A stretch of DNA of 43,233 bases from Solirubrobacter phytolaccae (GTDB lineage Bacteria > Actinomycetota > Thermoleophilia > Solirubrobacterales > Solirubrobacteraceae). Shown piece by piece: positions 3,377 to 19,798 of this stretch (its first letter is position 1; each line of letters begins with the position of its first letter). The DNA is taken from assembly GCF_027587195.1 (NCBI RefSeq), contig NZ_JAPDDP010000070.1:1-43233 (forward strand). Reading direction: 5' to 3'. The notes beneath the pieces were generated by a model, which worked only from the letters and a program-made list of their open reading frames with translations, did no database searches and was not told the origin of the DNA. A program made the position numbers and the translations under genes.

Positions 3377-5440
3377 ATGTCGTACGCCGCAGATAGGATT
3401 CGCAACGTGGCCCTAGTGGGCCACCGAGGGAGCGGGAAGACGTCGTTGCACGAGGCCTTGATGTTCGAGGCCGGCGCGACGACGAGGCTCGGCTCGGTGG
3501 CTGACGGCACCACGGTCTCAGACGCCGACGAGGACGAGAAGTCCCGCGGCATGTCGATCTCCGCGTCACTCGCCTCGTTCGAGTGGCGCGACGTGAAGGT
3601 CAACCTGATCGATACCCCCGGCGAGCCCAGCTTCATCGCCGACGCGCTGGGAGCCCTGCGCGTCTGCGAGTCGGCCGTGTTCGTCGTCAACGGCGTGATG
3701 GGCGTCGAGGTCTCCACGCGCCGCCTGTGGGAACGGGCGCAGGAGCTGCACGTGGCCCGTCTCGTCTTCGTCAACATGCTCGATCGCGAGCGAGCGGACT
3801 TCTTCCGTGCGCTGGACTCGCTGAAGGAGGCCTTCGGGCCGCACGTCGTCGCGACCGAGATCCCGATCGGCGTCGAGCATGACCTCAACGGCCTCGTCGA
3901 CCTGGTCGACATGAAGGCCTACCAGTACGACGCCGAGGGCAACTGCACCGAGATCCCGATCCCGGAGGAGCTGCAGGCCCAGGCGGAGGAGTACCGCGAG
4001 AAGTTGATGGACGAGGTCGCGGAGAACCATGAGTCGCTGATGGAGCGCTACCTCGAGGGCGAGGAGATCTCCCACGACGAGATCGTCCAGGCGCTCGAGG
4101 AGGGCACGGACACGGGGCACATCTTCCCGGTCACGTGCGGCATCGCCACTACGCGGCTGGGCGCGAACCGGCTGCTCGACGCGATCATCGACGACCTCCC
4201 GTCGCCCGCCCAGCACGAGCGGATCACGGTCGAGGAGGGCTTCGAGCTCGAGCCCGACCCCGAGGGCGAGATGTTCGCGTACGTGTTCAAGACGCGCGCC
4301 GACCCGTTCGCGGGTCGCATCAACCTGTTCCGCGTCTACCAGGGCACGATGAACCACGACACGCAGGTCATGAACACCCGCACCCATCACAAGGAGCGGG
4401 TCGGCCAGCTGCTCGTGCCACGCGGCAAGGACGTCAGCCACGCCGACGAGTTCGGGCCCGGCGACATCGGCGCGGTGGCCAAGCTCAAAGAGACCCACGC
4501 GGGCGACTGGCTCGCGGCGCGCGACCAGCCGATCCACATGCCGCGGATCAAACTGCCGGCGCCGGTCATGGCCTTCGCGATGGAGCCCAAGAACAAGGGC
4601 GACGAGGACAAGGTCCACACCGCGCTGCGCCGCCTGCAGGAGGAAGATCCGACGATCGACCTGCACCGCGACGAGCAGACGGGCGAGCAGATCGTCGCCG
4701 GCCTCTCGCAGATCCACGTCGAGGTGATCATCGACCGGATGCGCTCGCGCTTCGGGGCCGAGGTCACGCTCAAGCCGCCGCGCGTGCCCTACCGGGAGAC
4801 GATCCGCGGGACCGCGAAGGCCCACGGGCGCCACAAGAAGCAGACGGGCGGCCGCGGCCAGTTCGGCGACTGCCACATCGAGGTCGAGCCGCTGCCCGAG
4901 GGCGACTTCGAGTTCGTCAGCGCGATCAAGGGCGGCGCGATCCCGAACGGCTTCATCCCGGCCGTCGAGAAGGGCGTCCGCGAGGCGATGATGAGCGGCG
5001 CCGTCGCGGGCTTCCCGGTCAAGGGCGTCAGGGTGACCCTGTTCGACGGCTCCTACCACACGGTGGACTCGTCGGAGATGGCGTTCAAGATGGCCGGCAG
5101 CATCGCGATGCGTGACGCGATGTCCCAGTGCACGCCGGTGCTGCTGGAGCCGATCATGCTCATCAGCTGCTCCGTGCCGGACGACTCGGTCGGCGACGTG
5201 ATGGGCGATCTCAGCTCCCGCCGCGGGCGTCCGCTGGGCACCGAGCCCGCCGGCGGCATGACCGAGGTCAAGGCCGAGGTGCCGATGAGCGAAGTCCTCA
5301 GCTACGCGCCGGATCTGCGCGCCGTGACGGGCGGCCAGGGCGAGTACACGCTCGAGTTCCTGCGCTACGAGGAGATCCCCGCGCACCTCGCCCAGAAGGT
5401 CGCCGAGAAGGCGAAGGAAGAGGCCGAAGCGGTCGCATAA
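3377..5440 (+). CDS. EF-G-like translation factor (EF-G2 type) with altered GTPase motifs
   Basis: A 687-residue protein with the full EF-G layout: G domain, domain II, domains III-V (for example the domain IV segment GRGQFGDCHIEVEPLPEGDF). The P-loop is intact (GHRGSGKTS, residues 15-23). Three other nucleotide motifs depart from canonical EF-G. Switch I has RGMSIS instead of RGITI. Switch II reads DTPGEPSF (79-86), with Glu where EF-G/EF-Tu have the catalytic His. G4 is NMLD (133-136) instead of NKxD. EF-G2-type paralogues in mycobacteria and Thermus also differ in switch II, and the mycobacterial one is reported to lack ribosome-dependent GTP hydrolysis. A ribosome-associated but non-translocating role is therefore likely. 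The start ATG has GAGAGGAG upstream. This is not the housekeeping fusA. Confidence 0.92.
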   Translation: MSYAADRIRNVALVGHRGSGKTSLHEALMFEAGATTRLGSVADGTTVSDADEDEKSRGMSISASLASFEWRDVKVNLIDTPGEPSFIADALGALRVCESAVFVVNGVMGVEVSTRRLWERAQELHVARLVFVNMLDRERADFFRALDSLKEAFGPHVVATEIPIGVEHDLNGLVDLVDMKAYQYDAEGNCTEIPIPEELQAQAEEYREKLMDEVAENHESLMERYLEGEEISHDEIVQALEEGTDTGHIFPVTCGIATTRLGANRLLDAIIDDLPSPAQHERITVEEGFELEPDPEGEMFAYVFKTRADPFAGRINLFRVYQGTMNHDTQVMNTRTHHKERVGQLLVPRGKDVSHADEFGPGDIGAVAKLKETHAGDWLAARDQPIHMPRIKLPAPVMAFAMEPKNKGDEDKVHTALRRLQEEDPTIDLHRDEQTGEQIVAGLSQIHVEVIIDRMRSRFGAEVTLKPPRVPYRETIRGTAKAHGRHKKQTGGRGQFGDCHIEVEPLPEGDFEFVSAIKGGAIPNGFIPAVEKGVREAMMSGAVAGFPVKGVRVTLFDGSYHTVDSSEMAFKMAGSIAMRDAMSQCTPVLLEPIMLISCSVPDDSVGDVMGDLSSRRGRPLGTEPAGGMTEVKAEVPMSEVLSYAPDLRAVTGGQGEYTLEFLRYEEIPAHLAQKVAEKAKEEAEAVA

Positions 5441-16560: not shown

Positions 16561-17999
16561 CGTCCGATCGCGGCCTCTCCGGTCCCCATCTCGCGCGGCT
16601 GCTCGGTGAATGGCGTTCCGGCGGCGCGGCCTATGCGGCGCTCGCGCGGGCCATCCGGCTGCTCGTCCTGGACGGGCGACTGCCGCTGCGCACGCGGCTC
16701 CCGGGTGAGCGCGAGCTGGCGGAGGCGCTCGGCGTGAGCCGCACCACCGCGACCGCCGCGTACTCCGCGCTGCGCGAGGAGGGCTTCCTCGCCAGCCGGC
16801 GTGGCGCGGGCTCGTGGACGCGGCTGCCCGCCGACCCCGGACTCGCCTCGCTGCCCGCGCCCGCGGGTGAGGACGTGATCGACCTCAGCTGCGCCGCGAC
16901 CGCCGCGCCGGACGGCGACCTGCACCACGCGCTGGCGGCGGCGACCGCCGAGCTGCCGCGCTACCTGCCCGGCCCGGGCTACGACTCGGCGGGCCTGCCG
17001 GTGGCGCGCGAGGCGATCGCGGCCTACCTCACGCGGCTCGGCGCGCCGACGACACCGGACCAGATCCTCGTCACGGCGGGCGCGCTGCACGCGCTCACGC
17101 TGCTCCTGCGCGTGCTGTCCGGCCCCGGCGACCGCGTGCTCGTCGAGCACCCGACCTACGCGGCGGCGCTCGACGCCGTGCGCGCCTCGGGCGCCCGGCC
17201 CGTACCGGTCCCGATGCTCGACGGCGGTTGGGACCTCGAGATGTTCGCCGCGACGTTCCGCCAGGCCGCGCCCGGCCTCGCGTACGTGATCGCCGACCAC
17301 CAGAACCCGACCGGCCACTCGATGCCGCAGGCCGACCGTGAGCGGCTCGTCTCCCTCGCGCGCGCGACGCGCACGCCGCTCGTCGTCGACGAGGCGATCG
17401 TCGGCCTGCACCTCGACGGCGAGCCCGAGCGCTCGGTCGCCGCGCTCGACGAGTCCGGCGAGACCGTGATCACGATCGGCTCGATGAGCAAGACCTTCTG
17501 GGCCGGCCTGCGGATCGGCTGGGTCCGCGCGAACCCGTCCCTGATCCAGCGCCTCGCCGCGGCCCGCGCCGCGCTGGACATCGGCAGCCCGGTGCTCGAG
17601 CAGCTCATGGCCGTCGAGCTGCTCGGTCGCGCCGACGCGATCCTCGCCCGTCAGCGCGAGGCGGCGCTCGTCCGCCGTGCGGCGCTCGTCGAGGCCTTGC
17701 GGGAGGAGCTCCCGTCGTGGCGGTTCACGGTCCCGGCCGGCGGGCTGTGCCTGTGGATCGAGCTCGACGCGCCGCGCTCGACGGCGCTCGCTGCGCTGGC
17801 CGACCGCCACGGCGTCCGGCTCGCCGCCGGTCCGCGCTTCGGCGTCGACGGCGCGTTCGAGCGGTTCATCCGGCTCCCGTACTCCTTGCCCGAGGACGTG
17901 CTGCGCGACGTCGTCTCACGCTTGGGGCCGGCGTGGCGCGGCGTGATGGCGGGCGGCACGGCGGTCGGCTCGGGGAGCGCGCCGGCACTTGTCGCGTAG
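16557..17999 (+). CDS. MocR-family (GntR HTH + aminotransferase-like) transcriptional regulator
   Basis: A 480-residue regulator. The N-terminal winged helix of GntR type (about residues 24-90) has PGERELAEALGVSRTTATAA and YSALREEGFLASRRGAGSW. The C-terminal fold-type I aminotransferase domain (about 110-470) has the PLP-binding Lys K312 in GSMSKTFWAGLRIGW, and DHQNPTGHSM and VVDEAIVG around the cofactor. MocR proteins sense PLP or PLP adducts rather than acting as transaminases. The divergent neighbour is a YczE membrane protein, which identifies the YczR-like subgroup. The start is coupled to a putative leader frame by ATGA. The end is followed by the SOS-type control region 7 bases after the stop. 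Confidence 0.93.
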   Translation: MTSDRGLSGPHLARLLGEWRSGGAAYAALARAIRLLVLDGRLPLRTRLPGERELAEALGVSRTTATAAYSALREEGFLASRRGAGSWTRLPADPGLASLPAPAGEDVIDLSCAATAAPDGDLHHALAAATAELPRYLPGPGYDSAGLPVAREAIAAYLTRLGAPTTPDQILVTAGALHALTLLLRVLSGPGDRVLVEHPTYAAALDAVRASGARPVPVPMLDGGWDLEMFAATFRQAAPGLAYVIADHQNPTGHSMPQADRERLVSLARATRTPLVVDEAIVGLHLDGEPERSVAALDESGETVITIGSMSKTFWAGLRIGWVRANPSLIQRLAAARAALDIGSPVLEQLMAVELLGRADAILARQREAALVRRAALVEALREELPSWRFTVPAGGLCLWIELDAPRSTALAALADRHGVRLAAGPRFGVDGAFERFIRLPYSLPEDVLRDVVSRLGPAWRGVMAGGTAVGSGSAPALVA

Positions 18000-18006
18000 C
18001 CGCTAG

Positions 18007-18020
18007 CGAACGGGTGTTCT
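18007..18020. promoter_or_regulatory. Upstream SOS (LexA) box, one mismatch
   Basis: CGAACGGGTGTTCT matches the Gram-positive/actinobacterial LexA consensus CGAAC-RNRY-GTTCG at all but the last base. It is 15 bases, centre to centre, from a perfect second box, giving tandem boxes about 1.5 helical turns apart. Confidence 0.7.
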
Positions 18021-18021
18021 G

Positions 18022-18035
18022 CGAACAGATGTTCG
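18022..18035. promoter_or_regulatory. Perfect SOS (LexA) box
   Basis: CGAACAGATGTTCG is an exact match to CGAAC-RNRY-GTTCG, with 5-bp arms that are perfect inverted repeats. It sits two bases upstream of the -10 TAAGCT (18038-18043), so bound LexA would block RNA polymerase at the promoter of the 79-residue gene. Confidence 0.85.
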
Positions 18036-18037
18036 TG

Positions 18038-18043
18038 TAAGCT
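18038..18043 (+). promoter_or_regulatory. -10 element TAAGCT of the SOS-boxed leaderless promoter
   Basis: TAAGCT ends 7 bases before ATG 18051 without a Shine-Dalgarno sequence. The -35 region is occupied by the two LexA-type boxes. Confidence 0.65.
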
Positions 18044-18050
18044 GCGGCGC

Positions 18051-18290
18051 ATGGAGCCCGCCGTACACCGCATCTCGGTCATTGCCGAGCAACCGCCCGC
18101 GATCTGGGATCGCCTGGAGACCGTCCTCGAAGCGGGCGGAAGTCCGCCGATCGCCATGACCCGCACGCCGTCGACGATCACGTTCACGTGCGACACGGGG
18201 GACTTCATGTTGCGGGCGCGGGTGGCGGATGCGTTGATGACCGTCTGCGACCACGGTGAGTGGCGCCGCAGTTTTCAGCCCGAGGACTAG
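18051..18290 (+). CDS. Small unknown protein, predicted DNA-damage-inducible
   Basis: A 79-residue protein (MEPAVHRISVIAEQPPAIWD...). I do not recognise a family. It looks like a compact alpha/beta domain: a strand (HRISVIAE), a helix (AIWDRLETVLEAGG), two strands (AMTRTPSTITFTCD and DFMLRARVADAL) and a C-terminal acidic tail. The two Cys residues are not in a CxxC motif. It has no signal peptide or membrane helix. Two tandem SOS boxes and a leaderless promoter precede it, so LexA control is the strongest clue. Its stop codon TAG forms part of the -10 of greA, which follows directly. A role linked to RNA polymerase or repair during SOS is inference only. Confidence 0.7.
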   Translation: MEPAVHRISVIAEQPPAIWDRLETVLEAGGSPPIAMTRTPSTITFTCDTGDFMLRARVADALMTVCDHGEWRRSFQPED

Positions 18291-18293
18291 AAT
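18288..18293 (+). promoter_or_regulatory. -10 element TAGAAT of greA, overlapping the preceding stop codon
   Basis: TAGAAT uses the TAG stop of the 79-residue gene as its first three bases and ends 7 bases before TTG 18301. It predicts a leaderless greA transcript independent of the SOS promoter, in addition to read-through from it. Confidence 0.5.
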
Positions 18294-18300
18294 GGCGGGC

Positions 18301-18768
18301 TTGACCGACCGTGTTGTCATGACCGCTGAGGCCCAGAAGGCGCTTCAGGACGAGCTCGAGCAGCTCGAGACGGTGTCGCGGAAGGAGATCGCCGAGCGCA
18401 TCAAGACCGCGCGCGAGTGGGGCGATCTCAAGGAGAACTCCGAGTACCACGACGCCAAGAACGACCAGGCGCACCTGGAGACGAAGATCCTTCGCATCCG
18501 GGAAGCCCTGCTCAACGCGGACGTCCGCGAGGTGCAGACCTCGACGGAGCGGGTCGGGTTCGGCAGCAAGGTCGAGGTCGAGGACTCCAAGTCCGGCAAG
18601 ACGCTGACCTACACGCTCGTGTCGCCGTCAGAGGCCGTCCCGGGCGAGGGCAAGCTCTCGATGGACTCGCCCGTCGGCAAGGCGCTCGAGGGCGCGAAGG
18701 TCGGGCAGACGGTCAAGCTCACGACGCCGCGCGGCACCAAAGAGCTGAAGATCCTGTCTATCGGCTGA
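18301..18768 (+). CDS. greA: Transcription elongation factor GreA
   Basis: A 155-residue GreA (starting MTDRVVMTAEAQKALQDELE). It rescues backtracked RNA polymerase by stimulating cleavage of the nascent RNA through the secondary channel. The N-terminal antiparallel coiled coil carries the acidic tip with AREWGDLKENSEYHDAKNDQ (about residues 37-56). The C-terminal FKBP-like domain includes VGFGSKVEVEDSKSGKTLTY, SPVGKALEGAKVGQTVKL and TPRGTKELKILSIG. Start TTG 18301 fits the leaderless -10; ATG 18292 (MAGLTDRVV) is an alternative that would couple to the upstream stop. It lies directly downstream of a gene with tandem SOS boxes, so it may be partly damage-induced. The 3' end overlaps the convergent hydrolase gene by 11 bases. 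Confidence 0.95.
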   Translation: MTDRVVMTAEAQKALQDELEQLETVSRKEIAERIKTAREWGDLKENSEYHDAKNDQAHLETKILRIREALLNADVREVQTSTERVGFGSKVEVEDSKSGKTLTYTLVSPSEAVPGEGKLSMDSPVGKALEGAKVGQTVKLTTPRGTKELKILSIG

Positions 18769-19798
18769 AGCGCCGGAGGCTGTCGACGAGCACGTCGGGC
18801 ACTTCCAACGCCGGGAAGTGCCCGCCGTAGTCCGGCGTCTCCCAGCGCTCGATGTTCGCGAACGCGAGCTCGGCCACCTCGCGCGGCACGTGGATCATCT
18901 CGCGCGGGAAGTCCAAGTACGTCATCGGCACCGTGATCTTCTCGCCGGCCGCGACCACCTGGTCGAGCGCGAACCCGCCGTGCAGGCGCGCGTGGTACGG
19001 CCAGAACGACGTGCCGATCGACCCGGTGATCCAGTAGATCATCGTGGTGGTCAGCACGTCGTCGCGCGGCACGCCTAGCTCGTCGGTCCACGAGTCGAAC
19101 TTCTCCGCGATCCAGGTCATCAGGCCCACGGGTGAGTCGAACAGCCCGTAGGTCAGCGTCTGCGGCTTGGTGCCCATGATCTGGATGTAGCCGCCCTCTT
19201 CCTGCGACCAGTGGGCGAGCTCCTCGCGCGCCTTGGCGGCGTGCTCCGGGTAGGACTCCGTCTTGCGCAGCGGCATCATGTTCAGGTGCAGCGCGCGCAC
19301 CGCGTCGGGGAACGCGTACGCCATCCGGCAGCCGATGTGCGCGCCCCAGTCGCCGCCGGCGACCAGGTACTCGCGGTGCCCGAGCGCGCCCATCAGCGCG
19401 TGCATCGCGTCGGCCATCTCGGCGGTGCCCGCGCGGCCCAGCCCGACCGACCAGCCGTAGCCCGGCAGTGAAGGCACGACCACGCGGAAGTGCTCGCGCA
19501 GGTCGGCGATCACGCGGTTGAACTCCCACACCGTCGACGGCCAGCCGTGCAGCAACAGCAGCGGCGGCCCGTCGCCCTCGACGATGCAGTGCATCCCGTC
19601 CACGACGTACTGCTCGAAGCCGTTGAGCACGTCCTCGGCGACGCGCCAGTCGTACTCCTCGCGCCAGTAGGCGGCGAGCTCCATCGCGTCCGTGAGGCCG
19701 TATCCGGCCGGCCCGTCGTCGGGCCAGCGGGTCGCGTCCAGCCGGCGCGACAGGTCCAAAAGCACGTCTTCGGCGACGTTGATCGAGAAGCGCTCCAC
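18758..19798 (-). CDS. Epoxide hydrolase, microsomal type (alpha/beta hydrolase with EHN domain)
   Basis: A 346-residue enzyme from GTG 19798. The N-terminal EHN region has the typical LDATRWPDDGPAGYGLTDAM and YWREEYDWRVAEDVLNGFEQ. The alpha/beta-hydrolase core has the oxyanion motif HGWP (84-87), nucleophile D150 in VAGGDWGAHIG, and a late His in YGGHFPALEVPD that serves as the base. It should open epoxides to diols through an ester intermediate. The start was chosen because TAGGGT lies 7 bases upstream and the family N-terminus begins here; the frame is open further upstream. It follows the M20 gene on the same strand with 10 bases between. The physiological substrate is unknown. Confidence 0.88.
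   Translation of the reverse strand: MERFSINVAEDVLLDLSRRLDATRWPDDGPAGYGLTDAMELAAYWREEYDWRVAEDVLNGFEQYVVDGMHCIVEGDGPPLLLLHGWPSTVWEFNRVIADLREHFRVVVPSLPGYGWSVGLGRAGTAEMADAMHALMGALGHREYLVAGGDWGAHIGCRMAYAFPDAVRALHLNMMPLRKTESYPEHAAKAREELAHWSQEEGGYIQIMGTKPQTLTYGLFDSPVGLMTWIAEKFDSWTDELGVPRDDVLTTTMIYWITGSIGTSFWPYHARLHGGFALDQVVAAGEKITVPMTYLDFPREMIHVPREVAELAFANIERWETPDYGGHFPALEVPDVLVDSLRRFSR

What the first reader, a model, noticed from the sequence alone, without database searches (positions are those of the whole stretch)
18007..18768. Tandem SOS boxes control an unknown 79-residue protein directly upstream of greA
Seen: CGAACGGGTGTTCT and CGAACAGATGTTCG, 15 bases centre to centre, fit the LexA consensus CGAAC-RNRY-GTTCG (13/14 and 14/14), and a leaderless -10 follows at once. 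The gene encodes an unrecognised small alpha/beta protein and is followed by greA without a gap. Known: LexA boxes of this form mark SOS genes in Gram-positive and actinobacterial genomes, and GreA rescues backtracked polymerase, which affects repair and transcription-replication conflicts. Inference: the pair is a damage-inducible module that adjusts elongation during SOS, with the small protein a candidate polymerase or repair partner. I know of no described SOS-regulated greA unit.
Basis: partly seen in the sequence, partly recalled or inferred. Interest (0 to 1): 0.75.

Follow-up and report, generated by a model that had tools for sequence, protein, structure and literature searches.

The report
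DNA-damage switch on second greA copy
In the soil bacteria Solirubrobacter, a second copy of a gene that restarts stuck RNA polymerase, together with a small protein seen only in that genus, sits behind what looks like the binding site of the DNA-damage (SOS) repressor, which suggests that these bacteria adjust transcription as part of their response to DNA damage.

Summary
Two LexA-type boxes (18007-18020, 18022-18035) lie just upstream of a 79-aa ORF (18051-18290), followed one base later by greA (18292-18768). The genus is Solirubrobacter. The proximal box, a TANNNT -10 and the leaderless-type start are kept in 7 of 7 genomes held for the genus (six distinct); the distal box in 3 of 7. The same box stands before lexA in 30 of 30 lexA loci examined in the order, and near imuB, dnaE2, dinB and uvrA here. 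LexA control is very likely, but not shown experimentally. It is under purifying selection, has no recognised family, and is predicted ferredoxin-like. Best reading: a LexA-repressed two-gene operon supplying extra GreA, probably cleavage-competent, plus a genus-specific accessory protein during SOS. What the small protein does is a guess.

The parts
18007..18020 (.). distal LexA-type box CGAACGGGTGTTCT (13/14)
   Evidence: a distal box 15 bases upstream of the proximal one is present in G000, G002 and G004 only (3 of 7 congeneric genomes)
18022..18035 (.). proximal LexA-type box CGAACAGATGTTCG (14/14), at -29 to -16 of the inferred start
   Evidence: perfect box in 7 of 7 Solirubrobacter genomes
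18038..18043 (+). -10-like element TAAGCT; leaderless start inferred at the A of ATG 18051
   Evidence: TANNNT at this place in 7 of 7 genomes; no sigma-70 consensus hit
18051..18290 (+). 79-aa protein, no known family, predicted ferredoxin-like fold
18283..18287 (+). GAGGA, Shine-Dalgarno-like, inside the last codons of the 79-aa ORF and upstream of the greA start
   Evidence: GAGGAC in 7 of 7 genomes
18292..18768 (+). greA2, GreA paralogue with a GDLKEN coiled-coil tip
   Evidence: TIGR01462 159.7 bits, cut-off 139

Best explanation
A LexA-repressed two-gene SOS operon. LexA on one or two boxes covers the -35/spacer region of a leaderless promoter (inferred from position). After DNA damage, RecA-stimulated LexA self-cleavage frees the promoter (established pathway, not tested here). 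The transcript yields a 79-aa Solirubrobacter-specific protein and, through a Shine-Dalgarno-like GAGGA inside its 3' end, a second GreA (GreA2) that keeps the acidic tip and is probably cleavage-competent. Most likely role: raise Gre activity above the level of GreA1 to clear backtracked or lesion-stalled RNA polymerase during repair and replication restart. The small protein acts as an accessory, possibly on GreA2 or RNA polymerase; this last step is a guess from gene order.
For: Box conserved in 7 of 7 Solirubrobacter genomes. The same motif lies within 250 bp upstream of lexA in 30 of 30 lexA loci examined (36 of 37 genomes had a lexA match), perfect in 26 and with one mismatch in 4. In this genome boxes lie at imuB-, dnaE2- (one mismatch each), dinB-, uvrA- and dnaB-like genes, and recA has a 9/10 box. 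One-base gap between the genes and GAGGAC in 7 of 7. GDLKEN tip in 7 of 7 (its catalytic role is recalled). The 79-aa ORF has pN/pS 0.27 overall and 0.05 for residues 47-79, against 1.1 and 2.1 in the other two frames (six distinct rows). Gre factors rescue backtracked RNA polymerase and matter in replication-transcription conflicts (PMC12448304, passages).
Against: No expression or binding data. No sigma-70 consensus promoter was found at the site. A separate promoter for greA2 is not excluded (TAGAAT overlaps the stop/start). Outside the genus greA2 has no perfect box, so SOS control is not a general property of GreA2. The small protein has no homologue that suggests a function.
Confidence: 0.7

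Rival explanations
1. The box matters for the small protein only: greA2 is expressed mainly from its own promoter near the gene junction, and the small protein is an SOS effector unrelated to GreA (for example a checkpoint or DNA-binding factor).
For: In the 33 greA2 loci of other genera printed no related upstream ORF is seen and greA2 starts from its own leader region. TAGAAT, one change from TATAAT, overlaps the stop/start at 18288-18293.
Against: The TAGAAT letters are largely fixed by the stop and start codons, and no promoter hit was found in 17900-18900. The box-ORF-greA2 unit stays together in 7 of 7 genomes with the one-base gap and GAGGAC unchanged.
Confidence: 0.21
2. The 79-aa ORF is only a leader that couples translation into greA2; the protein itself does nothing.
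For: It contains the greA2 Shine-Dalgarno-like sequence and has no known domain.
Against: Residues 47-79 are nearly invariant (pN 0.03) while synonymous sites differ at pS 0.57. The fold is predicted with mean pLDDT 81.
Confidence: 0.06
3. The boxes are chance or are bound by a regulator other than LexA.
For: Sites with 1-2 mismatches are common at this base composition.
Against: Perfect RNRY boxes are about ten-fold over the control in these genomes, sit at SOS genes, and this one is conserved in 7 of 7.
Confidence: 0.03

Closest known systems
LexA/RecA SOS regulon of Actinobacteria (Streptomyces venezuelae, PMC9380542, passages seen)
   Same: lexA, recA, dnaE2, dinP and uvrA among the targets; a box of the same type (the Streptomyces consensus is recalled, not read)
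   Different: Here a greA paralogue and a genus-specific 79-aa protein sit behind a box; greA is not named in that paper's main text (the two 'grea' hits are the word 'greater')
GreA transcript-cleavage factor (TIGR01462)
   Same: Nearly full-length match over the curated cut-off, both Pfam GreA_GreB domains, GDLKEN tip
   Different: Second paralogue, behind a LexA-type box, less conserved within the genus than GreA1 (mean identity 80% against 88%, six genomes each)
GreA-like VC0015a of Vibrio cholerae (PMC3936754, passages seen)
   Same: A second GreA-like protein beside the true GreA, connected with SOS
   Different: There its loss prevents aminoglycoside-induced SOS, so it acts before induction; here the gene itself is predicted to be a LexA target

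Membership tests
LexA (SOS) regulon member | LexA-box motif of the organism in the promoter | tested here: met
   perfect box 18022-18035 plus a 13/14 box; the same motif at lexA in 30 of 30 loci examined, 26 perfect
LexA (SOS) regulon member | site conserved in orthologous promoters | tested here: met
   7 of 7 Solirubrobacter genomes, with varying spacer and upstream DNA; no perfect box at 37 greA2-side rows outside the genus
LexA (SOS) regulon member | induction by DNA damage and LexA binding | not testable with these tools
   needs RNA-seq and gel shift or ChIP
GreA (TIGR01462) | score over curated cut-off and near full-length alignment | tested here: met
   159.7 bits, cut-off 139, profile 1-150 of 151
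GreA (TIGR01462) | acidic pair at the coiled-coil tip (GDxxEN; residue roles recalled) | tested here: met
   GDLKEN in 7 of 7
GreA (TIGR01462) | transcript cleavage with RNA polymerase | not testable with these tools
   needs a cleavage assay
a known family for the 79-aa protein (Pfam, NCBIfam, PHROGs, PADLOC, PDB sequences) | significant profile match | tested here: not met
   best Pfam E 0.13 and PHROGs E 0.15 among 7 members; no hit in NCBIfam (E up to 1), PADLOC (E up to 0.1) or PDB sequences (E up to 10)
ferredoxin-like fold of the 79-aa protein | beta-alpha-beta-beta-alpha-beta order and structural match | tested here: inconclusive
   order E4-10 H16-28 E35-38 E42-47 H52-65 (H71-74) E75-77; best Foldseek E 0.012; VIA best Z 8.0 to generic ferredoxin-like domains

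The most novel reading that the evidence does not exclude
A damage-inducible transcription-elongation module: LexA releases a dedicated GreA paralogue together with a purpose-made small partner that alters how Gre or RNA polymerase behaves at lesions, so that SOS directly reprograms elongation. I found no description of this for greA in the searches made.
Probability: 0.3. Interest if true: 0.78.

Novelty: new variant of a known kind. Interest (0 to 1): 0.52.

Why it matters
SOS regulons are known mainly for repair, bypass-polymerase and checkpoint genes. A Gre factor under LexA would mean that a bacterium treats backtracked RNA polymerase as part of DNA-damage management. It would also give a natural system in which GreA1 (no box) and an inducible GreA2 can be separated genetically, to ask when transcript cleavage helps or hinders repair.

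Tried and rejected
Homologues of the 79-aa protein outside Solirubrobacter: of 146 family genomes searched, 8 match: the 7 of the genus (all 7 held for it) and G100, with a 16-residue tail only. The G100 match appears to be the Patulibacter MAG scaffold L071 (same position, not proven identical). I reject it as an assembly chimera: a Patulibacter-type greA2 N-terminus, a run of N, then the ORF tail with a Solirubrobacter-type greA2 N-terminus that continues into a Patulibacter-type C-terminus; this is inference from sequence, not proof. The Pseudomonas hit L072 (32%) was set aside; its surroundings look by eye like a TonB-receptor gene. No relative in viral contigs or plasmids.

Fold searches gave only generic ferredoxin-like domains (copper-chaperone HMA domains, aspartate-kinase regulatory domains, eIF2-alpha and others), Z at most 8, which warns may mean a common arrangement only. 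No function is taken from them.

Upstream ORFs of greA2 in other genera: in the 33 of 37 greA2-side loci outside the genus that I printed, none looks by eye like the 79-aa protein. Box upstream of greA elsewhere: 0 of 84 greA rows in 49 genomes outside the genus have a perfect box within 600 bp (464 bp for L126); six have a one-mismatch site (L095, L100, L102, L114, L129, L132). Across the phylum 68 loci (28 over 600 bp, 40 over about 600-700 bp; two of the 28 re-test known copies, so 66 are new) gave no perfect box and three one-mismatch sites. Not every greA match was fetched, and LexA boxes of distant Actinomycetota may differ from this motif.

Literature: 0 papers for greA + LexA + 'SOS box' (whole word); 32 for greA + LexA, of which I saw titles and abstract starts, none announcing LexA control of greA. 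One search listed 20 of 1,265 (its term also matched 'great'), one search listed 15 of 114. Passages were read in PMC9380542, PMC12448304 and PMC3936754 only. Most subscription papers are not held, so I do not claim that it is absent from print.

Full report
OBSERVATION. The two boxes, their spacing, the 79-aa ORF and greA are present as described. The second box is the only perfect CGAAC-N4-GTTCG in the window. The ORF stop (18288-18290) and the greA ATG (18292) are separated by one base, with GAGGA (18283-18287) just upstream of the greA start and inside the ORF's last codons.

ORGANISM. The window is contig C137 of a 7.74-Mb assembly. The five full-length matches to the 79-aa protein in named genomes (76-82% identity) are all Solirubrobacter, so the window is from that genus (class Thermoleophilia; rank name recalled).

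IS THE MOTIF THE LEXA BOX HERE? Yes, by position. The lexA gene of this genome has CGAACACACGTTCG upstream. I examined 30 lexA loci out of 36 genomes with a lexA match (37 searched): all 30 have the motif within 250 bp upstream, 26 perfectly and 4 with one mismatch. In the own genome other sites lie at genes matching IMS polymerases (imuB-like, one mismatch; dinB-like), a PHP/DNA-pol-III-alpha protein (dnaE2-like, one mismatch), UvrA, DnaB, a DprA-like protein, a radical-SAM protein and a YhcG-type nuclease. Not all sites make sense as SOS sites: of the 20 regions fetched several lie at genes with no evident link to damage. recA has a 9/10 box in 3 of 4 genomes and an 8/10 box in the fourth. 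Perfect RNRY boxes number 10-13 per genome on the + strand against 0-1 for the reversed pattern, in six genomes.

IS THE SITE AT THE ORF-greA UNIT CONSERVED? In all seven Solirubrobacter genomes held a perfect box lies at the same place before the ORF, followed by GTGTA[AGC]G[CA]TG and, 6-7 bases later, ATG. The four spacer bases differ (AGAT, ACGT, ATAT, GTAT) while both half-sites stay intact. The distal box is present in three (G000, G002, G004). Seven is a small number and two of them (G001, G006) are identical here. The flanking genes are only partly shared: a relative of the window's MocR-like gene was found in the loci of four of the six distinct genomes (G000, G002, G004 and, farther upstream, G005), and a relative of the epoxide-hydrolase-like gene in five of six (not G005).

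WHICH greA? All 61 genomes of the sample have a greA match and 50 have two or more, some of them partial or under the cut-off. A tree of 100 sequences puts the own genome's other copy in a 50-row clade with 100/100 support that excludes the window's copy; the bootstrap had not fully settled. I call the window's copy greA2. greA2-side rows outside the genus number 37 in 37 genomes, none with a perfect box within 600 bp upstream. Of the seven greA1 rows of the genus, six have no site with at most one mismatch within 600 bp and one (G003) has a one-mismatch site at -374. Both paralogues keep an acidic tip (GDLKEN or GDISEN-like types; catalytic role of these residues recalled). greA2 is less conserved within the genus (mean identity 80.3%) than greA1 (88.0%), six genomes each, which fits a conditional role but does not prove one.

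THE 79-AA PROTEIN. It is found in 7 of 7 Solirubrobacter genomes and in none of the other 139 family genomes apart from one short match judged chimeric. No significant family match in Pfam, NCBIfam, PHROGs, PADLOC or PDB sequences. Residues 47-79 are nearly invariant with many synonymous changes (pN/pS 0.05, uncorrected, six distinct rows), so the protein is selected as such. AlphaFold2 on the 7-row alignment gives mean pLDDT 80.6, pTM 0.63, and a beta-alpha-beta-beta-alpha-beta order; structural matches are generic.

MECHANISM. Shown: motif, conservation, gene order, open frames, selection. Established elsewhere: LexA repression relieved by RecA after damage (recalled); Gre factors reactivating backtracked RNA polymerase and helping at replication-transcription conflicts (PMC12448304, passages). 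Inferred: the boxes at -29 to -16 and -44 to -31 block the leaderless promoter; damage induces both genes; GreA2 adds to GreA1 during SOS. Guessed: the small protein works with GreA2 or RNA polymerase.

NOVELTY. No title, abstract start or passage that I saw links LexA boxes to greA, and a phylum-wide sample of greA upstream regions showed no perfect box. The parts are known kinds (SOS regulon, GreA); the combination and the small protein are new to me, so I file it as a new variant of a known kind.

Noticed in passing
L018:1650-1663 (G000:C79:74149): A perfect LexA-type box lies 28 bases before a dnaB-type (replicative helicase) gene; relatives of this gene also lie beside a perfect box in G001 and G002.
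   Followed up: partly
L021:2002-2015 and 2037-2050 (G000:C94:41501): Two boxes at the start of a 655-aa radical-SAM protein that seems to carry an intein-like insertion within its cysteine motif (judged by eye); relatives lie beside perfect boxes in G001, G002 and G004, and relatives of its C-terminal part near boxes in G003 and G005.
   Followed up: partly
L020:1522-1535 (G000:C90:36521): A perfect box 30 bases before a YhcG-type PDDEXK nuclease that matches the PADLOC candidate defence family PDC-S02, which suggests a damage-inducible defence gene.
   Followed up: partly
L017:1342-1355 (G000:C38:1342): A perfect box overlapping the likely start of a 256-aa cysteine-rich protein (HNH-like by eye, no Pfam match at E 1e-5), divergent from a GlmU-like gene (named by eye); the same pair beside a box in G005.
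   Followed up: partly
L205 (G000:C94, upstream of recA): recA has a degenerate box (CGCACAGATGTTCG, 9/10 in three genomes, 8/10 in a fourth), weaker than the box at lexA or greA2.
   Followed up: no
L071 (JAVHXX010000173.1) 4175-4870: A Patulibacter MAG scaffold looks chimeric at greA2: Patulibacter-like and Solirubrobacter-like sequence meet around a run of N.
   Followed up: yes
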